In this document: one piece after another, positions 768 through 16,332 of the stretch
Numbering within the stretch: the first letter of the stretch is position 1
Layout of the letters: every line of letters begins with the position of its first letter
Assembly (NCBI GenBank): GCA_902727985.1
Contig: CACVAY010000129.1
Coordinates: 1-64,000 of the forward strand
Source: an uncultured Thiotrichaceae bacterium
GTDB lineage: Bacteria; Pseudomonadota; Gammaproteobacteria; Thiotrichales; Thiotrichaceae
Length of the DNA: 64,000 bases
Reading direction: 5' to 3'
Made by a program: the position numbers and the translations under genes
The notes under the pieces: model-generated
What the model was told of the DNA's origin: nothing
Database searches by the model: none
What the model saw: only the letters and a program-made list of their open reading frames with translations

Positions 768-980
768 ATGGCAGTTGGAGCAAGTGGTCGTATAGTGATA
801 GAAATCAGCCCTGATCTAAAACAGGCATTATATGAGCAGCTAAACCAGGATAATTTAAACCTTAAACAATGGTTTCTAGGTCATGTTGATGAATTTTTAG
901 AAAATAAAACACAATTAAATCTAAGTTTCACGCCCTCTTCAAAAGATGATCAAATAAAAGAACTTGTTGAGGCTAAATAG
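768..980 (+). CDS. Small ribbon-helix-helix-like protein, possible autoregulator
   Basis: A 70-aa protein preceded by AGGAG with good spacing. Residues 7-45 read as one beta strand (GRIVIEIS) followed by two helices (PDLKQALYEQL and NLKQWFLGHVDEFL), the layout of MetJ/Arc-type ribbon-helix-helix DNA-binding proteins. The tail is charged. The stop codon is one base before the ATG of the DUF4007 gene, so the two are co-transcribed. I infer that it represses the operon through the tandem palindromes 20-55 bases upstream. It could instead be an accessory subunit of the modification machinery. I know no named family for it. Confidence 0.6.
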   Translation: MAVGASGRIVIEISPDLKQALYEQLNQDNLNLKQWFLGHVDEFLENKTQLNLSFTPSSKDDQIKELVEAK

Positions 981-981
981 A

Positions 982-1902
982 ATGATTTTTTCAGAAAAAA
1001 AAGTAGCTTTCGGAAGGCATGAAACCTTTCAATTACGTTACAGTTGGTTAACAAAAGGTTTTTTGGAGCTGAAAAAAAATCCAAAAATTTTTAGTTCTGA
1101 TGACGCTACTGTAAAGCTGGGCGTTGGGAAGAACATGGTCAACTCAATACGCTATTGGCTTCAAGCCGCTCAAATAGTTACATTAGAAAAGGGAGAATAT
1201 AAGATCACACCATTAGGTGAGTCTATTTTTGGCGACAAGGGTTTTGATACTTATCTGGAAGATGAGGCCACTATCTGGTTAGTTCACTGGTTATTAACAA
1301 GCAATCCAGCAATGGCTACGAGTTGGTATTGGTATTTTAATTATTTTCATAAGCCTGAATTTACCAATAAAGACGTAGTAGATAGTCTCCATAGCTTTGC
1401 AAAGCAGCATATTGTTTCTAAATTTACATTGGCAACCTTAAAAAAAGATGTGGATATTATTTTACGCATGTATTCACATTCTAAGGTTAACACTAAGCAA
1501 TCGATAGAGGACTCTCTGGACTCACCCTTATCGTTACTTAATCTGGTTTCACACCTGCCTGATATAAAATCCTATTACTCCTTTCCTGAAGAAAGAAATA
1601 AAATTCCTCTAGGCGTGATTGGCTTTGCAGTAATGAGTGTTTTTGAAGAAATAAAGTCAGACTCCATTCCCATTGAAAACTTAATGTATATGAAAGGAAA
1701 ACATCCTGCACTAGGAGCCATCTTCAGGATGACCGAAAGCTCACTTCTGGCGAAACTCGAACTGCTTGCCCGATATATTCCGAATACTTTGGAAATGCGT
1801 GAAGATGCAGGTATTCATCAGCTACACAGATTAGAGAAACGCAAGCCCATCGAATACCTGAAAAAACATTATAATGATGAACAGCTTAAGGTAGCAGCAT
1901 GA
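982..1902 (+). CDS. sspB: DUF4007 protein, SspB-like component of DNA phosphorothioation
   Basis: About 306 aa from the ATG at 982; a TTG 18 bases upstream overlaps the preceding gene and is less likely. The start FGRHETFQLRYSWLTKGF and the following VKLGVGKNMVNSIRYWLQA match the DUF4007 family. From general knowledge, DUF4007 proteins accompany a large ATPase and a PAPS-reductase-like protein in SspBCD single-strand phosphorothioation, where SspB is reported as a nicking component. The helix-turn-helix-like N-terminus here (KLGVGKNMVNSIRYW) suggests DNA contact. The TGA overlaps the next ATG as ATGA, a sign of translational coupling. The cysteine desulfurase SspA that normally feeds sulfur is not in the window. 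Confidence 0.75.
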   Translation: MIFSEKKVAFGRHETFQLRYSWLTKGFLELKKNPKIFSSDDATVKLGVGKNMVNSIRYWLQAAQIVTLEKGEYKITPLGESIFGDKGFDTYLEDEATIWLVHWLLTSNPAMATSWYWYFNYFHKPEFTNKDVVDSLHSFAKQHIVSKFTLATLKKDVDIILRMYSHSKVNTKQSIEDSLDSPLSLLNLVSHLPDIKSYYSFPEERNKIPLGVIGFAVMSVFEEIKSDSIPIENLMYMKGKHPALGAIFRMTESSLLAKLELLARYIPNTLEMREDAGIHQLHRLEKRKPIEYLKKHYNDEQLKVAA

Positions 1903-4900
1903 ATCTAGCAGACGTTATAACGGTAAATACTAATTATACGCGTTCAATCAATCTTGAACGTGACGTTGACTCTGTATCCTTAGTAAAATCTTATATCCCG
2001 ACATCACGGTCTGTCTATGCTTTACAAAAAGCGGTTGATACTTTGAAAACGGAAGCCGATATGCCAAGAGCATGGACGCTAGTGGGGCCTTATGGGTCAG
2101 GTAAGTCATCCTTTGCAGTTTTTCTCTCACACTTATTAGCTAACCCTAATAACCCAGCCTCAAAAGCAGCCCTAAAAGTTTTAGGTGAAACTTACCCTGT
2201 TCTGGAAGATCAGTTTAACGAAGTAAGTGAAATGACACGGGGGCATTGTGTTGTACTAATAACGGGCAGCCCAGAACCACTAGGAAAGAGGCTTATTCAG
2301 GCCGTAAGTGAAGCCGCCATAAAATACTGGCAGCATCGAAAAGAAGAACATCCAGAAGCGGTAAAGATTGTTATTTCATTGGCAAAACAAGAGCAAATTT
2401 CTACATCAGAAATCATGAATGCTATTAAGAGCTTGCAAACAGCCATTGGAAAAGTAGAAGGAAATGGGTTGTTAATCGTTATTGACGAGCTGGGTAAATT
2501 CCTTGAATACGAAGCTAGACATCCCGACACCAATGACATCTATCTGCTTCAGGCATTGGCAGAACTAGCTTTTACTGGTGGCAAGTCTGCATTATCAATT
2601 TACGTCATTCTGCATCAAGCCTTTGAGCAATACGCAAAAGGACTTGGTGATACCCTGAAAAATGAATGGGCAAAAGTACAAGGTCGCTTTGAAAGCATCC
2701 CTTTTCTGGAGGCCACTGAGCAAACACTTCGAGTTGTTGCCAATGCTATTCAGCACAATACCTCTATAGATTCAAAAGCAATAAAAACACAAACTGACAG
2801 CATCGCAAAGGCTCTGGCAAATGCCGATGCATTATCTGGCACACTAGAAGAAAAAGAAGCCAGCAAACTTTTTGCGAAATGCTATCCCCTCCATCCTGTG
2901 AGTGCACTTTTATTACCCGTGCTTTGTCAAAAAGTAGCACAAAACGAGAGAACACTTTTCAATTATCTCGGTAGTGAAGAGCCCTTTGGGTTAAAGCAAA
3001 GCTTAACGACTTTAGGCAAGGTAGGTGACTGGATATACCCTTGGGAAATATACGAATACTTTATTCATAATCAGTCTGCATCACTAGTCGATCATTTTAC
3101 CCATCGTCGTTGGGCTGAGGTAGTTACCGCTGTCGAACGTCTAGGTGATATAGACTCCAATGAAACAAGATTACTCAAGGCAATCGGTCTACTTAATATC
3201 ATTGGCAATCAGGGCGGTTTAAAAGCCTCAAAGACAATAACAAGTCTTTGTTTGCCTGATAAAAATCTGGTAGAGGAAATCATCCAGTCACTTCAAACTG
3301 AATCCATCATCCAGTATCGTAAATACAATAGTGAATATCGTGTTTGGCAAGGCAGTGATTTTGATATTGAAACAGCCATTTACAATGGAGTTCAAAGGCT
3401 GGGTTTATTTAGTATTGCTAACTATCTCAATACGCAATATGAAACTCGGCCCATCATTGCAAGAAGATTCTCTATAAAAACAGGAACCCTGCGATTCTTT
3501 GAAACCGCCTTTGTTGATATTGACACTTATACAAACTTGAGCAGTGAATCCACAAACGCCAGAATTATTTTCTATCTCTCACAAGATCAGGAAGACTCCA
3601 GAAAATTCCAGTCGGAACTCGTTAGTTACTATGGTGAAAGAGATATACTCGTTGAATTTCCACAAACAGAGTTACTTAGAGGCGCTATTGCAGATGTGTT
3701 GGCTTTACGTGAAATTCAAGCAAGCAATCAGGAATTACACAGCGACCCCATAGCCCAACGTGAGTTTAAAGATCGCTATCAGGCAGCACTTCAAATAGAA
3801 GAAACCAAGTATTCAGAAATCATTGATCACCCCGAAACAAGTCATTGGTACTGGAAAGGCGAAGCCTTTACCGTATTAAACAAACGTGACCTGCAAAACA
3901 GACTCTCTGACATTCTGGATGATATTTATAAATCGACTCCAGTGATTAAAAACGAGTTAATTAACCGAATCAAGCCTTCAAGTCAGGCCGCCGCAGGAAG
4001 AAACAAGCTGTTGCAAGCAATGGTGAACCATCCGCAGCAGGAAGATCTGGGTATAGATAAGTTCCCCGCAGAAAAAGCCATGTATCGTGCGGTCCTCAAG
4101 CAAACAGGTTTACACGTCTTTACAGAAAAACAGTGGGAATTTGTTGCGCCTACGCAAGAATCAACCCTTTATCCCGTATGGAAAGCAATGGAGTCTTTCC
4201 TTGAAACGACTGAAAAGACTCCTCGTTCCTTTGCAGAATTGGCAAAGGTTATTTCAAAACCTCCCTATGGTATTAAAAGTGGTTTATTGCCCATTTTGTA
4301 TCTTGCGTTGTACCTGGTAAAAAACGAAGAAATTGCACTCTATGAAGACCGACGGTATTTGCCTTCACTATCCAAAGAAGAGCTAGAGCGCTTTGTAAAG
4401 AAGCCAGATGGCTTTACCGTGCAACTTTTCAAGATTGAAGGTCTAAATGCCTCTTTATTTCAGTGTTACACCGATGCACTGTTTGGCAAGGAAAAACCAG
4501 CATCCGTTATACAGGCAATAAGACCACTGGCTCAATTTATAAATGACCTAAATGAATATACGCAAAAGACAACAACGATACCTAAAAAAGCACAAGCATT
4601 AAGGAGTGCTTTCAACCTGTCTAAATCACCTGAAAGCCTGTTATTTGAAGGTATCCCAAAGGCACTTGGCTATAAAAAGGTAGACAACCAAAATCTGGAA
4701 GGCTACGCAGATGCTCTTAAAGCAGCTATACGTGAATTAAAATATGCCTATGAAAATCTGCTAAAGAAACAAAAGGAACTTCTGGAAAATGCCTTTCATT
4801 TAACAAAAAACAGTGAACTGTCTGAGTTAAGAGTACAGCTCAGAGGGCGATATAAAGGGCTAGAACAATACACCGTCGATATTGATGGACTGAAAGCTTT

Positions 4901-5369
4901 TATTATGCGCTTAACATCTGAAACCGATAATGCTGAAAAGTGGTTCTCCAACCTATTAATGTTTCTTGGCAACAAAGACAGCACAAAATGGAGAGACACT
5001 GATCAGTCTCGCGCAGAGCTACGACTAAGCGAGTATTCAAAACGCATACTGGATTTGGAAACATTAAATCTGGAACAAAAGCGTATGGCAATGAATACGG
5101 ATCAGGATTTTGATGTTATTTTGCTAAAAGCGATTAAAAAAGGTGATAAAGAACGTGTACATGCTGTGGCTATTGATGCCAGTACACATAAGGCAGCAGC
5201 TACTATAAAGGAAAAAATAAAAATCCAGTTAAACCTTGAAAGTGAAGAGTTACAACTAGCTGTACTAGCTGAACTTGTTGACGAGTTTTTACAGGAATAT
5301 CAAACTACTTCACAACAGGCTAGTGCTATCCAGAAAAAGCTGGAATTAAAGAGAATAAATAATGGCTAA
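1899..5369 (+). CDS. sspC: Large P-loop ATPase, SspC-like (related to BrxC/PglY-type ATPases)
   Basis: A 1156-aa cytosolic protein. Walker A GPYGSGKSS is at residues 63-71 and Walker B LLIVIDELGKFLEY at about 191-204. The long remainder is mostly helical, with a charged coiled-coil-like stretch around 940-1010. Size and motifs fit the ATPases shared by SspBCD and BREX systems. The DUF4007 and PAPS-reductase neighbours, and the absence of PglX and PglZ, point to phosphorothioation rather than BREX. The probable role is to power DNA engagement or remodelling during sulfur insertion. The gene overlaps its upstream neighbour by 4 bases and its downstream neighbour by 8, so the three proteins are probably made in stoichiometry. 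Confidence 0.75.
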   Translation: MNLADVITVNTNYTRSINLERDVDSVSLVKSYIPTSRSVYALQKAVDTLKTEADMPRAWTLVGPYGSGKSSFAVFLSHLLANPNNPASKAALKVLGETYPVLEDQFNEVSEMTRGHCVVLITGSPEPLGKRLIQAVSEAAIKYWQHRKEEHPEAVKIVISLAKQEQISTSEIMNAIKSLQTAIGKVEGNGLLIVIDELGKFLEYEARHPDTNDIYLLQALAELAFTGGKSALSIYVILHQAFEQYAKGLGDTLKNEWAKVQGRFESIPFLEATEQTLRVVANAIQHNTSIDSKAIKTQTDSIAKALANADALSGTLEEKEASKLFAKCYPLHPVSALLLPVLCQKVAQNERTLFNYLGSEEPFGLKQSLTTLGKVGDWIYPWEIYEYFIHNQSASLVDHFTHRRWAEVVTAVERLGDIDSNETRLLKAIGLLNIIGNQGGLKASKTITSLCLPDKNLVEEIIQSLQTESIIQYRKYNSEYRVWQGSDFDIETAIYNGVQRLGLFSIANYLNTQYETRPIIARRFSIKTGTLRFFETAFVDIDTYTNLSSESTNARIIFYLSQDQEDSRKFQSELVSYYGERDILVEFPQTELLRGAIADVLALREIQASNQELHSDPIAQREFKDRYQAALQIEETKYSEIIDHPETSHWYWKGEAFTVLNKRDLQNRLSDILDDIYKSTPVIKNELINRIKPSSQAAAGRNKLLQAMVNHPQQEDLGIDKFPAEKAMYRAVLKQTGLHVFTEKQWEFVAPTQESTLYPVWKAMESFLETTEKTPRSFAELAKVISKPPYGIKSGLLPILYLALYLVKNEEIALYEDRRYLPSLSKEELERFVKKPDGFTVQLFKIEGLNASLFQCYTDALFGKEKPASVIQAIRPLAQFINDLNEYTQKTTTIPKKAQALRSAFNLSKSPESLLFEGIPKALGYKKVDNQNLEGYADALKAAIRELKYAYENLLKKQKELLENAFHLTKNSELSELRVQLRGRYKGLEQYTVDIDGLKAFIMRLTSETDNAEKWFSNLLMFLGNKDSTKWRDTDQSRAELRLSEYSKRILDLETLNLEQKRMAMNTDQDFDVILLKAIKKGDKERVHAVAIDASTHKAAATIKEKIKIQLNLESEELQLAVLAELVDEFLQEYQTTSQQASAIQKKLELKRINNG

Positions 5370-6219: not shown

Positions 6220-7953
6220 ATGCAAAATAAAATTATTCCAGCTAATGCGGGAAAACTCCTCAATGCAGTAGCAAGCATCGGGTACGATGTAGAAGTTGCA
6301 ATATGTGACTTAATAGATAATAGCTTTGATGCCAATGCAAAAAATGTACACCTATATGTAGATGAATTAATAGAAGATGGTGAAGCAACTAATCTTATCT
6401 CTAAATATATTATTGCTGATGATGGGATAGGTATGGATGGAAATGCATTGATCAATGCATTTACTTTAGGAAGTGATAGAAATTATGATGATGGTTCTCT
6501 AGGTAAGTTTGGTCTAGGTCTTAAGTCAGCTGGTTTGTCATTAGGTGACAAAATAATTATTATTACAAAGAAAAAGGATGAGGATAAACCCTTATGTGCA
6601 ACACTTTCTTTACAAGATGTAGAAGATGCTGGTGAGTATCAAATATCAATTGGGGAAGCTAAAGAAGAATATTTAAACTTATGGGATGGCTACTCGGCTG
6701 AAATAGAACATGGGACGGTTCTGATTATTGATTCACTAAATGATGGTCAGTCGACCTCCACAAAATTCATAGACTACTTAACTCGCTATTGTGGGCAGGT
6801 TTATCATATGGCGATAGAAGATAACGATAGCCCAGTTCGCTTATACATAAATAACGATGAAATATCCCCAATTGATCCATTATTTATGGATGAAGCAACG
6901 AAAAATGGTGCATTATCTAATATTGAAGAATGGAATGGTAAAACAACACATCTACTGATAGAAGATACAGAGTTAAGTCTAGATAATGGTATTACTTGCA
7001 CAATTGCGGCTACAAACCTAGTACACCCCCCAACATTTGAAATAGATGGTGAAGCCGAGAGGCAACAAGAACGAGAAAAATATCAAGTAACTCCTGATCC
7101 CTGGACTAAAAAACCAAGGCATGGTTTTTATATCTATCGTAACCGACGCATTATTGTGATGGCTGAGAGATTTCATGGCCTTGTACAGTCTGCTACACAG
7201 GCTTGGGCCTTTAGAGCTCGTTTAATGTTCGATGAATCTGCTGATAATATACTCGCATTAGATGTCAAAAAGCGACATATGAAACTTCCTAAAACAGCTA
7301 GGAATAATTTAAAAAATTTAGTTGCCGGCTATCAAAGTAAAAGTATTAATGCCTGGAAGTATAGGGGTAAAATTTATAGTGAATGGGTGGGCGAGGAAAA
7401 AGAGACTATCGCAAATCAAAGCGTTGCAAACACCCCCGTTGGTAATCTTGATTATGTACCAAACTCAACCATCACTAGTGAGGATGATAAAAAAGAAAGA
7501 AAAAAGCTTCAAAAAGATATTGAAAAAAAGAGTCTAGAATCAATACAAGATCGTGATCTTACCAAGGAAGCTTTGGAAGAGTTTGCCAATAAAAATTACT
7601 CCATAGTACCTTCTAATGGATTAAAAGGTAACGCTATGTGGTTACCTTATCCTTCCGTTGAATTAGGAAGAGCTGAAACAATTTTAAATAAACAACATTC
7701 ATGGGTCGCTGATGCACTACAAGCAGCCGAAGGAAATCCTGAGGCTGCTATAATTTTATATCAACTTCTTGCCATTATATCTCGATCAGAAATGGAAGTA
7801 AGAGCAACACCTTGGCCTAATATTAGTCCTAAAATTATAGATAAAGTCTTTGATATTTTTAGAAGGAAGGTTAGCACTATTGGTGAAGATGTTGCTGATA
7901 GCTTAAACGAGGAGATTACGAACCTTAAAAATGGTGGAATGCGGGAAGACTGA
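6220..7953 (+). CDS. GHKL ATPase (HATPase_c_3/MORC-like), putative defence effector
   Basis: A 577-aa protein starting 30 bases after sspD with AAGGGG upstream. N-terminal Bergerat ATPase motifs are clear: CDLIDNSFDANA (about 29-40), ADDGIGMD (about 67-74) and GKFGLGLKSAG (about 91-101). This is the fold of Hsp90, MutL, topoisomerase VI B and MORC proteins, which close as ATP-driven clamps. The C-terminal third contains a Lys/Glu-rich helix (about 425-460) and no recognised nuclease motif. Position directly after the modification genes suggests it senses or clamps DNA and works with the GIY-YIG/HEPN protein 3 bases downstream. It may correspond to a subunit of the described sspBCD-sspFGH cassette; I cannot check that. 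Markedly AT-rich. Confidence 0.75.
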   Translation: MQNKIIPANAGKLLNAVASIGYDVEVAICDLIDNSFDANAKNVHLYVDELIEDGEATNLISKYIIADDGIGMDGNALINAFTLGSDRNYDDGSLGKFGLGLKSAGLSLGDKIIIITKKKDEDKPLCATLSLQDVEDAGEYQISIGEAKEEYLNLWDGYSAEIEHGTVLIIDSLNDGQSTSTKFIDYLTRYCGQVYHMAIEDNDSPVRLYINNDEISPIDPLFMDEATKNGALSNIEEWNGKTTHLLIEDTELSLDNGITCTIAATNLVHPPTFEIDGEAERQQEREKYQVTPDPWTKKPRHGFYIYRNRRIIVMAERFHGLVQSATQAWAFRARLMFDESADNILALDVKKRHMKLPKTARNNLKNLVAGYQSKSINAWKYRGKIYSEWVGEEKETIANQSVANTPVGNLDYVPNSTITSEDDKKERKKLQKDIEKKSLESIQDRDLTKEALEEFANKNYSIVPSNGLKGNAMWLPYPSVELGRAETILNKQHSWVADALQAAEGNPEAAIILYQLLAIISRSEMEVRATPWPNISPKIIDKVFDIFRRKVSTIGEDVADSLNEEITNLKNGGMRED

Positions 7954-7956
7954 TAA

Positions 7957-8952
7957 ATGACTAGCATCCAAAGATATGCGCCTATAGCCCATTTTAATGG
8001 TACTTTAACTCAGGAGGTAAGTATTACAGATAAGCTTCCGTGGCTTTATATTATTGCTTCATTAAAGCAAAAAATATTATATGTTGGGGAGACATTTGAT
8101 GAAGCAGGAATAACAGGACGGTTATCTAGTCACTTTGGTCGCGCCATAAACAGTAACTTTAAACAATGTGCCTCAACTAATGCTGGTATTAGAAATATTC
8201 CTCCTCCTTATTTGGTAGTTGCTGCAAGAATGCCGTTTGATGATGACCATGCTCCGTTTAATGGGGAAAGTAAAAGGGTAAGGAAAGCATGTGAATCACT
8301 TTTACATGAAGTAATTACAACTAAATTCATACTACCTAAAAAATGGATAATTATTTCTAGTGCTTCATCAAGCCTTGAATTAAAAGAAGAAATGAAAAGC
8401 TCCTGTAATGAGATATTTGATAATTTTATGGCTAGTTATACTTTTCTTGAAAACCTATCATCTAAAATACTACCTTTTAATTTCGTTTTATTAGATAGAG
8501 TAGCAGAACAAGTGCCTAGTCCCCCGAATATTGGGGATATAATTGAAGATATTGAATTACAATTATTTGATTGGATGATTAAAGTTCTTCAAGATGATCA
8601 TGGAGATAAGTGGTGGACAAAGGGAGTCAAAGAATCTATTCGTATAAAGTGTGCCTCAATTCAAGAAAGCGAGGGAGAGAGTGATAATGTACCAAGATGG
8701 GCATATCTTACTTTAATAGATATAAAGGCAATTATTGAAGCAAACTGGAATTTATTTTCTTCAGCTATGGAAGAAGTTTCAAGTTTTCAAGGAAAAGCAA
8801 AAGCAACAAGATGGATTGTTGAAATTAATGAGAAGAGAAAACTGTGGGCTCATCCTTTAAAACAAAGATTTGTAAGTATTGCCCCTAGTGATATTAATAA
8901 GATAAAGACTTACCAGGCAAAACTTAGAGAAGCAATTAAGAATGATGCATAA
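7957..8952 (+). CDS. Putative GIY-YIG nuclease fused to Swt1-like HEPN domain
   Basis: A 331-aa protein. Residues 29-60 contain WLYII, then LYVGET, then R55 and H59 in RLSSHF. This reproduces the GIY..YIG..R..H spacing of GIY-YIG nucleases, with a candidate metal-binding Glu at 113 or 118. Residues 215-325 are helical and end in NEKRKLWAHP (291-300), an R-x4-H motif typical of HEPN domains, closest in feel to the Swt1-type HEPN. So two candidate nuclease or binding modules lie in one chain. It begins 3 bases after the GHKL ATPase stop, so the two are very likely a functional pair. The HEPN part may be a non-catalytic dimerisation module. No family name was recognised for the whole protein. 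Confidence 0.6.
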   Translation: MTSIQRYAPIAHFNGTLTQEVSITDKLPWLYIIASLKQKILYVGETFDEAGITGRLSSHFGRAINSNFKQCASTNAGIRNIPPPYLVVAARMPFDDDHAPFNGESKRVRKACESLLHEVITTKFILPKKWIIISSASSSLELKEEMKSSCNEIFDNFMASYTFLENLSSKILPFNFVLLDRVAEQVPSPPNIGDIIEDIELQLFDWMIKVLQDDHGDKWWTKGVKESIRIKCASIQESEGESDNVPRWAYLTLIDIKAIIEANWNLFSSAMEEVSSFQGKAKATRWIVEINEKRKLWAHPLKQRFVSIAPSDINKIKTYQAKLREAIKNDA

Positions 8953-9217: not shown

Positions 9218-11671
9218 CTAATCGCTGAGACTTTCCATTAATGCTGAAACCTCGAAATTCATGAGAAACTCAGTATAGGAGCCATCAAATATTTTCATTA
9301 AATAATCAGGAAGTTCAAGTTCCTCATTCTTGCCAGAGGCTTCGCTTGATTCAGAAATCTGAATTCCTTTGTTTTTGTTGATCATATAAAGGAAAAGTGT
9401 ATGGAAGTAAACAGATGATAAGTATCGCCTTTTAGACAGATTGAGTTCATCCTCATTTCTAAGCTTTCCCATGTGGTTCTTTATAATGGTTGAGTCCATA
9501 TTTATAAAAATACTTTCTAATTTATCCTCTTCAAGATATGGATACATTACCGTGTCATAATCAAAGTCGATATAATTAATATCACCCCATGATGTATTGT
9601 TATCTGTTTTTTCTTTATAGACTTCAACTAGCTTTGGCAATCCTAGCTGACTAGGCTGTTCTTCTTGCTGAGATTTATGATCCTGTTTTGTCTTCTTATC
9701 TAGGATTTTCACTATAAATATTTGTTCTAAATCAGCACCAGGTGATGTGAGTTTGGCTTTAACCGTAAACTGACTCCCAACTTTAGTTTCCTTACTAGGA
9801 TTAATATTGACACGAATTGTCCCCTTGTTTGGACTTGATTTATTCACACTAAGTAAACCTTGAATATCTTTTGGTTCTCCGGGTTTATCACCGCCAGTAG
9901 TGTCATTCTTTTTGGGTTTAAGTATAGCTATTTGTAGTTCACCGTTTTCATCAGTGCGATCAAAGTATTGATCTTCAACGTCTGTTGAGAATTTGATGGT
10001 TTTATCACCATTTATAGGAATTTGTATAACAGGGATTGCGTCTTTTTTGCTCTTTGTATCAATCTTGAAACTGGTTGGAAAACGCTTTGGACTAAAAGGC
10101 TGCTCTTCTTTCCCCTGTGTTTGTGAAGGCATATTTTTTTGCTTCTTTTTGGATTTTGAGCCGCCTTTTTCTTTTAGATCAAATGTATGATTGATCAGCT
10201 TCATTAGATCACTATCAAAGGGGAGGTTTTCGCTAAAATCTTTTAATAAACTACTAGTAGAACCTGTATTTGCTGCAAGCTCCTGTTTCCTCTTATGGTA
10301 TATTTCATCAAGCCTACCATTTTTCTTTTTCAAATAGCTGGAAAGTTTCTTCCTGAGCATAGCAGACTCTTCACCATTTTTGAGCCTGTCACGTGATGCC
10401 ATAAACAACTCACTCCTGAAATCCATTTCAAGTTTTGTACAATCAACATGAATTAGGAGGTAATCTTTTAACAGGTTGAATTTTAAAGAACGTGTTACAA
10501 ATTCAGATGTGTAGTTGCCATGTACTTGGCCATTTAAAGAGAAGATTACAGACATATTATTTTTAAAAAATTCTCTACGAATTGCAGCTTTGGACTCTTT
10601 AATACTTTTCCCTTCAATTCTGTGGTTAAAGACATAAACAGTCACTTTGTAAGTACCAATTTCTGAGTCCTGTATTTCTTCTGAGAATGTTTCGCTAATG
10701 TACTTATTATCATCAGAATCAAGACGATGCTTTAAACCAAACAAATCACGATGAAGGTTTCTGTCTTTTGGATACCTTTCTTCTGAGTCAATAGTGTAAA
10801 CGGGTAGAGCGGGTTGAAATAAATACTCATTAATACTTTGGTTCAAGTCTCTTGAAATAACTGAACGAGAGCCGCTAGGAAGATTATAGGAATAAAGTTT
10901 TATAACCGTTCCAGTTGTGAAATTACGATGATAAAGTCCTAAATCTATACCTTCATCGGGGAGTTTAAAGCTTGGTATGTCGTTATTAACAGTTAGATAT
11001 TCATACCATGTGTTTTTCTTAGTTTTCTTTTCAGCGTCGGATAAAGGATGCTTTCTAATAAGTGTAAAACCAAAGTCCCCTGTGCCATCAAAGCGTCTTG
11101 AGGCCATCAGTTGATAACGCTGTTTTCCACAAAAGACAATTGCGCCCGACCCACCCATATTATATTTTCCTTGTACAAAATGAATTTCGTTTTTGTTTCC
11201 TCGTAACAAAGAAAGAAATGTATCACTAAAATCTTTTGGATGTTGTCCTTCACCATTGTCATAAATAATCAACGATGTATCTTTATTTCTATCTTTGTAT
11301 GAGCCATCAGCAAGTATTTGAATATCTTCAGCTTGAAGCTGTCTATTTTTGGATAAATCCCAATTTGGTGAATTAGAAAAGTAACTTATAATAGCCTCGT
11401 CTACACTTTGAGGTGCTTTTGCTGATTTTGGGTCAAATCCCGCTTCAAGACACTTCTTCATCAAGATGGCATCAATAGAATTTGTTAGTTTTTCCACTAG
11501 TGCTGGAATAGCAGATGCTTGCTGATTTTCTATTACACCAAAGAAGCTTTCATTATCTCCATATGGATGCCAATCAATACTAGAGTCTTCTGAATACTGC
11601 TCTAATACATAACTAACTTCACTTTCTTTTGAGGAACGAAATAATTTGTCAAACAGATTTTTTGTATCCAT
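9218..11671 (-). CDS. Large GHKL ATPase (Hsp90/MORC-like), putative defence protein
   Basis: An 817-aa protein. Bergerat-fold motifs: EKLTNSIDAI at residues 60-69 (motif N), DNGEGQ at 138-143 (motif G1) and NMGGSGA at 171-177 (ATP lid). Around 440-560 the sequence becomes Lys/Ser/Gln-rich and low in complexity (ESGGSKSKKKQK-like), probably a linker. Then comes a beta-rich section and an acidic C-terminus. No nuclease motif is visible. It is oriented against the sspBCD operon but shares the GHKL ATPase type with the product of 6220-7953, although the two proteins are not obvious duplicates. I infer a further effector or sensor of the same system, or an independent defence gene. The motifs support the ATPase call strongly; the function is unknown. 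Confidence 0.7.
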   Translation of the reverse strand: MDTKNLFDKLFRSSKESEVSYVLEQYSEDSSIDWHPYGDNESFFGVIENQQASAIPALVEKLTNSIDAILMKKCLEAGFDPKSAKAPQSVDEAIISYFSNSPNWDLSKNRQLQAEDIQILADGSYKDRNKDTSLIIYDNGEGQHPKDFSDTFLSLLRGNKNEIHFVQGKYNMGGSGAIVFCGKQRYQLMASRRFDGTGDFGFTLIRKHPLSDAEKKTKKNTWYEYLTVNNDIPSFKLPDEGIDLGLYHRNFTTGTVIKLYSYNLPSGSRSVISRDLNQSINEYLFQPALPVYTIDSEERYPKDRNLHRDLFGLKHRLDSDDNKYISETFSEEIQDSEIGTYKVTVYVFNHRIEGKSIKESKAAIRREFFKNNMSVIFSLNGQVHGNYTSEFVTRSLKFNLLKDYLLIHVDCTKLEMDFRSELFMASRDRLKNGEESAMLRKKLSSYLKKKNGRLDEIYHKRKQELAANTGSTSSLLKDFSENLPFDSDLMKLINHTFDLKEKGGSKSKKKQKNMPSQTQGKEEQPFSPKRFPTSFKIDTKSKKDAIPVIQIPINGDKTIKFSTDVEDQYFDRTDENGELQIAILKPKKNDTTGGDKPGEPKDIQGLLSVNKSSPNKGTIRVNINPSKETKVGSQFTVKAKLTSPGADLEQIFIVKILDKKTKQDHKSQQEEQPSQLGLPKLVEVYKEKTDNNTSWGDINYIDFDYDTVMYPYLEEDKLESIFINMDSTIIKNHMGKLRNEDELNLSKRRYLSSVYFHTLFLYMINKNKGIQISESSEASGKNEELELPDYLMKIFDGSYTEFLMNFEVSALMESLSD

Positions 11672-11828: not shown

Positions 11829-13703
11829 TTAAACGAAAGGCTGCTTATTCGTTAGTGGCACAGGCTCAAACTTTCCAGAATAATCAAAGAAATCAATATC
11901 AAGCTCTCTGAGTTTGATTTTCACTCTTTCAAGTAGCAAAGGTTCATTCTTACTCCAATCGTCATAGCGCATCAGGCTAACCTTGCCTGATGTAATATGT
12001 GCTTTAAGAAGCTGGAAGTCGTCAATATCACCATAGAGCTGAGTTGCACAAGCTACATAGATGCGAAGCTCTGAAGGGAGGTCTCCTAAATGGCTTTTAT
12101 GGAAGGCAAAGCTATGACCTTCTTCCATATGACCACAGCCCAGAGTTTTAAATGCAGCCTTACAAGCAGCTTCAATAATAGTTGGGTTGCCAACAGAGAA
12201 TAGTAGCTCACGAGACTCTTCAAGAGCCTTTTGATAGGTTGGAAAGAATGCCTTAATATCGCGCTTTAAACTCTCTGGCATTTTTGTTTGTGGCTTGCGT
12301 CGTTCAAACATGCTCAATGCAAAATAAATCAGAAGATCCTCTCTGCGTCTTTCATTAGCCTCTTGGTAAACAGCTTCACCGAAATGCTTGAGCAGTGCTT
12401 TATGAGCTTTATTATGTGAGCCACAAAGTCGCCTGATCTGATCAGAAAACTCAAACTCGTTATTGGCAGGTATACGGCCTAATTCTAGTGTTGTTTCCCA
12501 GTAGTCAGTAAATAGCTCAATATTTTTGTCTATAACATCTTTTCTGATTTTCTTGGGTTTAAGTGCTAGTTGTCGCTGAGTTTTTTGTTTCCAGTCACGC
12601 TTTATATGCTGGCGTTCTGAAAGAAATAGTTGTTCTTCTAGTTTGTCTTTAAAAACAAGGAAAATTCCCTGGCCTACTGCGATAGCTGTTTCATCGAGCG
12701 CAGACTCAATGTAATAACGGATTTCACTTTGAGAGTAATATTTTTGGAAGGTATTTCTGCTAGTAATAATGCCGTCTTTGTAGGGTTTGAACTGACTGAT
12801 GACGCTTTCACCTGCTACCATAACGGCAATGACGAGAGCTTTATCTGCATGTTTCCATGCGTTAGTTAGTGTTTCTGTACGTTCCTGTCGGTCTTCTATG
12901 ACATTTAATACAAAACCAAGATTAACAATGTCTCGGTTTGAATATTTCTCATCGGGTCGGTGAACGGGATCCCAACCTGTTACGTCAATACCGTGAGCTT
13001 CTAGCTCTCTGACATCATCGCCTTTACCGCATCCGTAATCGAGAATACCGTATTCACCATTTAAGTAGTTATGTCGTGCAAGCACCTGCATAGGTTGTGA
13101 TAACTGATTACGGTTTATAGCGGTTTTATGGCGTTCGACTTCACCCTTAAAATCTGAAGGTTGAGAGGGTGGAATAGGTTTGTCAGTAAGAGGTTTGAGC
13201 CTACCCTTCTTATCCAGATAGTACCCTTTAGACTTGATGAGCTTCTCCCAATTCTTTTTAAATCCAATACGGTTTGTTTTTTCATAAAGACCGATGGCTT
13301 CACCTTCGATTGTGATTTCCTTGAATAAGGGGGCTAAGGGAAAAGATTCACTAACAAATGTTTCTTTGCGGTGCAAGATAGGAGGGTTTTCAGACTTTGA
13401 ATAATCTGATTTTCTAGCACTTTGTTTTTCAAGATCAACAAGCTGGCTAAGGTTTAACGGGGGATAGCTGTTTGTTTCAAAATCAGGGTAGTTGAGATAG
13501 GCTATTTTAAAATCTTTCTTGTAAAATTTGAGAATATTCCAGCTATTTTTTTTTATTTTGAACTGATCACTGGTGTTTAATGCTAGTTTTGCTAAGTTCT
13601 CAGGTAACTCACTCAGCCTGCTTTCATGTACATATATTGAGTCTGGTAATTTCTTACCTATTTTTAATCCTTTAACAATATCTCTATATTCTGAAAATTC
13701 CAT
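11829..13703 (-). CDS. DNA phosphorothioation-associated putative methyltransferase
   Basis: A 624-aa protein. Residues 188-330 match the TIGR04096-type family: RHKTAINRNQLSQP, then the SAM-binding motif LDYGCGKGDD (221-230), GWDPVHRP and NLGFVLNVIED. The flanks before 185 and after 350 are family-specific and without known domains. From knowledge, this family is recorded next to dnd phosphorothioation genes; its substrate is not established. Here it accompanies SspBCD-like genes rather than DndBCDE. A degenerate copy of its 3' end lies at 16223-16332, so this region has been duplicated. The stop is TAA at 11829-11831. Confidence 0.8.
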   Translation of the reverse strand: MEFSEYRDIVKGLKIGKKLPDSIYVHESRLSELPENLAKLALNTSDQFKIKKNSWNILKFYKKDFKIAYLNYPDFETNSYPPLNLSQLVDLEKQSARKSDYSKSENPPILHRKETFVSESFPLAPLFKEITIEGEAIGLYEKTNRIGFKKNWEKLIKSKGYYLDKKGRLKPLTDKPIPPSQPSDFKGEVERHKTAINRNQLSQPMQVLARHNYLNGEYGILDYGCGKGDDVRELEAHGIDVTGWDPVHRPDEKYSNRDIVNLGFVLNVIEDRQERTETLTNAWKHADKALVIAVMVAGESVISQFKPYKDGIITSRNTFQKYYSQSEIRYYIESALDETAIAVGQGIFLVFKDKLEEQLFLSERQHIKRDWKQKTQRQLALKPKKIRKDVIDKNIELFTDYWETTLELGRIPANNEFEFSDQIRRLCGSHNKAHKALLKHFGEAVYQEANERRREDLLIYFALSMFERRKPQTKMPESLKRDIKAFFPTYQKALEESRELLFSVGNPTIIEAACKAAFKTLGCGHMEEGHSFAFHKSHLGDLPSELRIYVACATQLYGDIDDFQLLKAHITSGKVSLMRYDDWSKNEPLLLERVKIKLRELDIDFFDYSGKFEPVPLTNKQPFV

Positions 13704-13972: not shown

Positions 13973-14425
13973 GTGACTGAAATTGATGATAAAATATCAA
14001 GGTTAACAAATGCTGAAAGTATAAATCCTAAAGATATTGCAATTATTATCATGGGAAAGTTCCATGAGGCGAAATCTCTTTTGGAAAATACCAAAAATAC
14101 CAAAAATACCAAAAATACCAAAAATACCAAAAATACCAAAAATACCAAAAATACCAAAAATACCAAAAATACCAAAAATACCAAAAATACCAAAAATACC
14201 AAAAATACCAAAAATAGCTATTTGTGGACTTACCAAGAATTTTCTCCCATTTCTAAGGTTTTAGTTGAAACAGCTAAAAGATTTAAAGGATTAGAAGCAC
14301 GTATTATTTTTCTTTGGATAACTGATAAAGAAGCTATGGAAGAAAAACTTCTTTATGTTTCTATATCACGAGCACGATTTAGATTATGGGTTGTAGGAAA
14401 TCAGTATATCGAGACCATTAGATAA
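13973..14425 (+). pseudogene. Superfamily I helicase, C-terminal remnant interrupted by a minisatellite
   Basis: A 150-codon frame opening at a GTG. Its end contains VLVETAKRFKGLEARIIF and LYVSISRARFRLWVVGN, which match the last motifs (V and VI) of UvrD-type helicases. The first 37 codons (SRLTNAESINPKDIAIIIM) fit the segment that normally precedes them. Between the two, a run of Asn-Thr-Lys from a 9-bp tandem repeat replaces the expected 40-50 residues. The ATPase half of the helicase is absent. It is a decayed gene, probably not functional. Confidence 0.6.
14091..14216. repeat. Minisatellite: 14 copies of CCAAAAATA
   Basis: Fourteen consecutive copies of the 9-bp unit CCAAAAATA with no visible divergence, ending in TAG at 14214-14217 in one register. 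Because the unit is a multiple of three and has no stop codon on either strand, all six frames are open. This creates several spurious ORFs (poly Phe-Leu-Val, Ile-Phe-Gly, Pro-Lys-Ile and Asn-Thr-Lys). The perfect identity suggests recent expansion, and copy number is likely variable. Confidence 0.98.
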
Positions 14426-16222: not shown

Positions 16223-16332
16223 TTAAAAGGGGGCTTTATTCAGAAGCGGCACAGGCTCAAGCTTCCCAGAATAATCAAAGAAATCAATATCACCATAGAG
16301 CTGGGTTGCTAACAGAGAATAGTAACCTTTAG
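16223..16332 (-). pseudogene. Internally deleted copy of the phosphorothioation-methyltransferase 3' end
   Basis: The plus strand matches the 3' end of the methyltransferase gene at 11829. 16230-16282 corresponds to about 11836-11900, then jumps to 12031-12046, then to about 12190-12207. The first junction lies in the 9-base direct repeat TCAATATCA (11892-11900 and 12022-12030). The second lies in a GTTGC-type repeat (about 12042 and 12187). A short frame still ends FFDYSGKLEPVPLLNKAPF, close to the real C-terminus FFDYSGKFEPVPLTNKQPF. It is a non-functional remnant of a second copy. Confidence 0.8.

What the first reader, a model, noticed from the sequence alone, without database searches (positions are those of the whole stretch)
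7957..8952. Apparent fusion of GIY-YIG nuclease and Swt1-like HEPN domain
LYII..LYVGET..R..H (29-59) and an R-x4-H motif RKLWAH (294-299) occur in one 331-aa protein translated 3 bases after a GHKL ATPase. A DNA nuclease module plus a possible RNase/dimer module suggests a two-target or gated effector driven by the GHKL clamp.
Basis: partly seen in the sequence, partly recalled or inferred. Interest (0 to 1): 0.75.

Follow-up and report, generated by a model that had tools for sequence, protein, structure and literature searches.

The report
Sulfur-marking phage defence with fused nuclease
A rare bacterial gene joins a likely DNA-cutting domain to a likely RNA-cutting domain and sits with an ATP-driven partner at the end of a gene set that tags the cell's own DNA with sulfur, so it is probably an undescribed weapon of a known type of virus defence.

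Summary
Window 7957-8952 encodes 331 aa, starting 3 bases after a GHKL ATPase. The N-terminal half is a divergent GIY-YIG nuclease with Y31, Y42, R55, H59 and E118 in place. The C-terminal half is a Swt1-like HEPN domain; N291, R294 and H299 are invariant in seven sequences from three gene contexts. Both assignments beat column-shuffled controls; Pfam alone leaves both below cut-off, and the AlphaFold models are poor.

The two genes close an sspB-sspC-sspD operon, the Ssp DNA phosphorothioation system, next to a TIGR04096 methyltransferase. The one other full-length homologue found (Leucothrix mucor MAG, 82% identity) has the same order, the same 3-base junction and strong purifying selection. 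In five of ten other SspBCD loci sampled, an SF2 helicase-GHKL pair sits beside sspBCD, followed by an HKD nuclease in the four that could be read to the end. So the GHKL subunit appears constant and the nuclease exchangeable.

Best explanation: a rare two-gene Ssp effector in which a GHKL clamp controls a GIY-YIG DNase, with HEPN as a second, RNA-directed arm or dimeriser. Catalysis, targets and the response to phosphorothioation are inferred, not shown. New variant of a known kind.

The parts
964..1902 (+). sspB (DUF4007), PT-modification nickase/target component by homology
   Evidence: Pfam PF13182 270 bits; PADLOC SspB 1.1e-90
1899..5369 (+). sspC, AAA+ ATPase, overlaps sspB by 4 bases
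   Evidence: PADLOC SspC 1458.6 bits
5362..6189 (+). sspD, PAPS-reductase-like ATP pyrophosphatase, overlaps sspC
   Evidence: PADLOC SspD 7.6e-106; Pfam PAPS_reduct
6220..7953 (+). GHKL ATPase, 577 aa, MORC/MzaB-like; ATP-site motifs DLIDNSFDA, DDGIGM and GKFGLGLKSA intact
   Evidence: Pfam HATPase_c_3 97.1 bits; MzaB 98.1 bits, far below its cut-off of 850; homologous to GHKL of SspBCD-helicase-GHKL-HKD loci
7957..8952 (+). GIY-YIG + Swt1-like HEPN fusion protein, 331 aa (the finding)
   Evidence: strong purifying selection between orthologues
8014..8376 (+). GIY-YIG domain, residues 20-140; Y31, Y42, R55, H59, E118
   Evidence: hhalign 30.7 vs at most 16.0 shuffled; predicted strand-strand-helix-strand-helix order
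8542..8871 (+). Swt1-like HEPN domain, residues 196-305
   Evidence: hhalign probability 99.3; PADLOC PDC-M34B 6.6e-8
8836..8853 (+). HEPN catalytic motif R294-x4-H299 (RKLWAH)
   Evidence: invariant in 7 sequences with N291
9218..11671 (-). Second GHKL-type protein, 817 aa; a separate recurrent Ssp neighbour, not part of the conserved core
   Evidence: 46-51% full-length homologues next to sspBCD-type genes on three plasmids; absent from the Leucothrix locus
11829..13703 (-). DNA phosphorothioation-associated putative methyltransferase (TIGR04096)
   Evidence: 608.6 bits, cut-off 150; conserved in the Leucothrix locus

Best explanation
The GHKL ATPase and the GIY-YIG-HEPN protein form a two-gene effector of an Ssp phosphorothioation (PT) defence system. 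SspBCD, with the genome's IscS standing in for SspA, puts sulfur marks on host DNA (inferred from homology). The GHKL protein is proposed to dimerise around DNA with ATP and to control its partner. The GIY-YIG domain then nicks or cuts invading DNA, the job done by an HKD/PLD nuclease in sister SspBCD-helicase-GHKL loci. The HEPN domain is proposed to act as an RNase when the DNA arm is engaged or fails; a purely dimerising role is possible. Shown here: operon, domain homology, intact catalytic residues, conserved pairing, purifying selection, and a nuclease of a different fold in the matching slot elsewhere. Inferred: activity, substrates, complex formation, trigger, and whether unmodified DNA is attacked (SspFGH-like) or PT is needed for activation (SspE-like).
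For: SspB, SspC and SspD give very strong PADLOC matches directly upstream on the same strand. GHKL-nuclease coupling at 3 bases and gene order are conserved in L. mucor HyVt-493. pN is 0.10 against pS 0.75 over the fusion gene, and dN/dS is 0.07 in HEPN, so both domains are maintained. Catalytic residues are intact in both domains. Five of ten other bona fide SspBCD loci carry an SF2 helicase-GHKL pair, four with a visible HKD nuclease; the GHKLs of those four align with the window GHKL over 230 columns at 97.6% probability. An iscS-type gene is elsewhere in the genome, and IscS can replace SspA (PMC8092258).
Against: Only two full-length homologues are known, so co-occurrence of the fusion with SspBCD rests on two loci of one family. 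No experimental data. The helicase of the sister modules is missing here. The GIY-YIG domain is below Pfam's cut-off and no structure was obtained with confidence. A second GHKL candidate effector lies next door (9218-11671), so the division of labour is unclear.
Confidence: 0.62

Rival explanations
1. The HEPN domain is the real effector (an RNase causing dormancy or cell death, as in abortive systems), and the GIY-YIG domain only binds DNA or senses nicks made by SspB. The GHKL protein transmits the signal.
For: N291, R294 and H299 are intact and invariant across three contexts; many bacterial Swt1-like HEPN domains are predicted active and occur in defence operons (PMC3710099).
Against: All catalytic GIY-YIG residues including E118 are kept, unlike a pure binder; sister modules have a nuclease of the HKD family and no HEPN in this slot.
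Confidence: 0.22
2. The HEPN domain has no RNase role; it dimerises the GIY-YIG domain so that two monomers cut both strands, and the protein is a plain DNase.
For: HEPN domains dimerise (general knowledge); GIY-YIG domains act on one strand each (general knowledge); eukaryotic Swt1 HEPN is inferred inactive (PMC3710099).
Against: The R-x4-H motif and N291 are fully kept, whereas inactive HEPN domains usually lose them.
Confidence: 0.25
3. The GHKL and fusion genes are an independent defence unit (MZA-like or other) that only happens to lie next to sspBCD.
For: The nearest GHKL sequences elsewhere lie in operons sized like MZA, with no Ssp match among their near neighbours; the SspD-GHKL gap is 204 bases in the Leucothrix locus.
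Against: Same-strand adjacency in both known loci; GHKL modules recur beside SspBCD; only 30 bases separate sspD and the GHKL gene in the window.
Confidence: 0.13

Closest known systems
SspABCD-SspFGH (Wang 2021, PMC8092258)
   Same: sspBCD with IscS, plus a separate multi-gene restriction module on the same cluster
   Different: SspFGH has a Walker A ATPase and an FtsK-like subunit; here GHKL and GIY-YIG-HEPN, with no PADLOC SspF/G/H hit among the genes scanned
SspABCD-SspE
   Same: Effector gene after sspBCD; SspE couples an NTPase to a nickase
   Different: SspE is one protein with a GmrSD/DUF262-type N-terminus (as in L030); not found among the genes scanned here
SspBCD + SF2 helicase + GHKL + HKD nuclease loci (L026, L028, L030, L032)
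   Same: SspBCD partner, homologous GHKL, nuclease as the following gene
   Different: HKD/PLD nuclease instead of GIY-YIG-HEPN; helicase present; no sequence relation between the nucleases
MZA system (MzaB)
   Same: Closest named GHKL family of the ATPase gene
   Different: Score is far below the MzaB cut-off; the neighbours are Ssp genes
PDC-M34 (PADLOC candidate)
   Same: Swt1-like HEPN domain closest to M34B
   Different: M34 is a DUF5343 + HEPN pair; no GIY-YIG, GHKL or Ssp
MORC/paraMORC GHKL restriction operons (Iyer 2008, PMC2292703)
   Same: GHKL ATPase paired with nucleases, proposed DNA-looping role
   Different: Methylation-based contexts; no PT genes mentioned

Membership tests
Ssp phosphorothioation system | sspB, sspC and sspD as a contiguous operon | tested here: met
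   PADLOC SspB 1.1e-90, SspC 1458.6 bits, SspD 7.6e-106; overlapping genes
Ssp phosphorothioation system | Cysteine desulfurase (SspA, or IscS elsewhere) | tested here: met
   iscS-type gene on contig C7 of the genome, 291.6 bits to PF00266; IscS-like by inspection of the sequence, not by a family-level test
Ssp phosphorothioation system | PT modification of host DNA | not testable with these tools
   Needs LC-MS/MS or PT-seq
SspE or SspFGH effector type | SspE, SspF, SspG or SspH gene present | tested here: not met
   No such PADLOC hit among the seven genes of the locus
GIY-YIG nuclease | Y, Y, R, H and E catalytic residues in order | tested here: met
   Y31, Y42, R55, H59 and E118 conserved in both orthologues; profile alignment 30.7 vs at most 16.0 shuffled
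GIY-YIG nuclease | Three-stranded sheet with GIY-YIG fold | tested here: inconclusive
   Model pLDDT 52.7; strand-strand-helix-strand-helix order; VIA matches to I-TevI 1ln0 (Z 2.5, rmsd 4.6, 73 aligned) and 1mk0 (Z 2.4, rmsd 4.9, 78 aligned) tie with unrelated folds
GIY-YIG nuclease | Pfam PF01541 gathering score | tested here: not met
   18.5 vs 22.6 bits. A curation threshold rather than a biological feature; called here a divergent relative on profile and motif evidence
Swt1-like HEPN | R-x4-6-H motif in a homologous domain | tested here: met
   R294-x4-H299 invariant in 7 sequences; hhalign probability 99.3
Swt1-like HEPN | Four-helix bundle structure | tested here: inconclusive
   C-terminal half predicted all-helical but pLDDT under 50
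GHKL ATPase (MORC/MutL type) | N, G1 and G2 box motifs of the ATP site | tested here: met
   DLIDNSFDA, DDGIGM, GKFGLGLKSA; HATPase_c_3 1.1e-27; MORC2 1.8e-7
MZA system | MzaB equivalog score and MZA partner genes | tested here: not met
   98.1 vs cut-off 850; neighbours are Ssp genes

The most novel reading that the evidence does not exclude
A PT-linked effector in which one GHKL-gated polypeptide cuts DNA with its GIY-YIG half and RNA with its HEPN half, giving restriction first and cell shutdown second. GHKL would be a general hub of Ssp systems that accepts interchangeable nucleases.
Probability: 0.3. Interest if true: 0.75.

Novelty: new variant of a known kind. Interest (0 to 1): 0.52.

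Why it matters
Published Ssp effectors found in the open literature are SspE and SspFGH. Here a different effector class is attached to the same marking genes: a GHKL ATPase with a GIY-YIG-HEPN fusion, and in sister loci a helicase, a homologous GHKL and an HKD nuclease. If right, GHKL ATPases are a recurring but undescribed control subunit of phosphorothioation defence, with a swappable nuclease. The fusion would also let restriction and RNA-level shutdown be tested in a single protein.

Tried and rejected
Wide homologue search: the fusion was sought in relatives, class, phylum and order samples, plasmids, viral contigs and one genome-contig scan that used only two short peptide patterns; one other full-length homologue emerged, so distant ones may be missed. 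GIY-YIG half alone: no match at E 1 in plasmids or phages. PDB sequence search: nothing relevant for the fusion. AlphaFold on the whole protein (pLDDT 39.5) and on residues 20-142 (52.7): too weak for a fold claim; Foldseek gave nothing below E 0.3, and VIA on the full model gave mixed unrelated folds. Relation of the fusion to the HKD proteins rejected (probability 0.2%). Viral HEPN relatives for a deeper alignment: none. Viral GHKL relative L043: a lone phage gene, no nuclease partner evident.

Full report
Observation. The ORF at 7957-8952 encodes 331 aa and begins 3 bases after the stop of a 577-aa GHKL ATPase. Pfam puts GIY-YIG (residues 29-69) and HEPN_Swt1 (202-303) just below the curated cut-offs, so I tested both halves separately. 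Residues 16-150 align to 29 GIY-YIG domains taken from related genomes with score 30.7; 60 column-shuffled copies reached at most 16.0, and the C-terminal half scored 8.3. The alignment pairs E118 with the E of the family's conserved (R/H)E motif. Residues 191-331 align to five other Swt1-like HEPN domains at probability 99.3 and score 116.5, against at most 21.9 for shuffles. N291, R294 and H299 are invariant across the fusion proteins, DGQHR/DndB-type HEPN proteins and PDC-M34B proteins.

Structure. AlphaFold had only two sequences to work with. The whole-protein model is poor (pLDDT 39.5). The N-terminal model (52.7) shows strand-strand-helix-strand-helix. A structural second look lists I-TevI's catalytic domain twice and the restriction enzyme PD-T4-3 twice among 12 rows, but at Z 2.2-2.5, tied with unrelated folds. 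I count this as inconclusive.

Context. Directly upstream and on the same strand are sspB, sspC and sspD, with overlaps at sspB/C and sspC/D and 30 bases between sspD and the GHKL gene. On the other strand lie an 817-aa GHKL-type protein and a TIGR04096 phosphorothioation-associated methyltransferase. An iscS-type gene is elsewhere in the genome; IscS is known to replace SspA (PMC8092258).

Conservation. One further full-length homologue was found, in the Leucothrix mucor MAG HyVt-493 (DRMS01000405.1; 82% identity), in a different genus of the same family. It has sspC (cut by the contig end), sspD, GHKL, fusion, then the methyltransferase, but not the 817-aa gene. The GHKL-fusion junction is conserved base for base (GGACTGATAAATGA). 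Synonymous sites are near saturation while pN is 0.10 (0.09 in GIY-YIG, 0.16 in the linker, 0.09 in HEPN), so both domains are under purifying selection. Only 2 of 63 genomes of the order carry the fusion, which fits a mobile defence gene.

Sister modules. A search for SspD in 398 Pseudomonadota genomes gave 14 matches including the window's own; leaving out three weak ones without an SspB/SspC pair (L035-L037), there are ten other bona fide SspBCD loci. Five hold an SF2 helicase-GHKL pair, and in the four that could be read to the end the next gene is an HKD/PLD nuclease (L026, L028, L030, L032). The window GHKL aligns to these four GHKLs over 230 columns at 97.6% probability. The fusion protein is unrelated to the HKD proteins. 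The simplest reading is a GHKL subunit with an exchangeable nuclease. Apart from these, the GHKL sequences closest to the window's lie in operons sized like MZA; I did not family-search those neighbours.

Mechanism. SspBCD marks host DNA. The GHKL protein, by analogy with MutL and MORC proteins and the DNA-looping proposal for MORC-containing restriction operons (PMC2292703), would clamp or loop DNA using ATP and position or license its partner. The GIY-YIG half would nick or cut DNA. The HEPN half has an intact RNase motif and could shut down the cell or simply dimerise the protein. Which PT state triggers the effector cannot be told: SspFGH attacks unmarked DNA and SspE needs the mark (PMC8092258).

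Known and new. Burroughs and co-workers list URI (GIY-YIG) and HEPN nucleases as separate neighbours of Dnd modification genes (PMC10853773). The HEPN survey lists Swt1-like HEPN fused to PLD, ParB, Vsr and other nucleases but shows no GIY-YIG fusion in the passages read (PMC3710099). Literature searches found no description of a GHKL effector or a GIY-YIG-HEPN fusion in Ssp systems; the library is open-access only, so this is not proof. I rate it a new variant of a known kind.

Noticed in passing
window 9218-11671 (-): 817-aa GHKL-type protein whose 46-51% full-length homologues on Devosia, Ensifer and Hymenobacter plasmids all lie within a few kb of ATP-binding/PAPS-reductase (and DUF4007) genes: a second, separate Ssp-linked candidate effector.
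   Followed up: partly
window 16226-16291 (-): Remnant of a second TIGR04096 methyltransferase 3' end, 86% identical over 58 bases to the Leucothrix gene; a relic of rearrangement around the locus.
   Followed up: partly
window 14085-14210: About 14 exact 9-base repeats (AAAATACCA) inside a short ORF that ends in a helicase-like C-terminus.
   Followed up: no
L109 11533-16035 and L110 4333-8708: Pairs of a protein with two HATPase-type domains (annotated 'sensor histidine kinase') and a 635-680 aa protein with no Pfam hit, next to Ssp genes on Devosia and Ensifer plasmids.
   Followed up: partly
L039 7025-9310 and L042 4096-6405: DndB/DGQHR-type proteins with a C-terminal Swt1-like HEPN domain and an intact R-x4-H motif; the L039 copy also has a weak NERD match.
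   Followed up: partly
L043 7971-9344: A lone GHKL ATPase gene related to the window GHKL (29%) in a viral contig.
   Followed up: no
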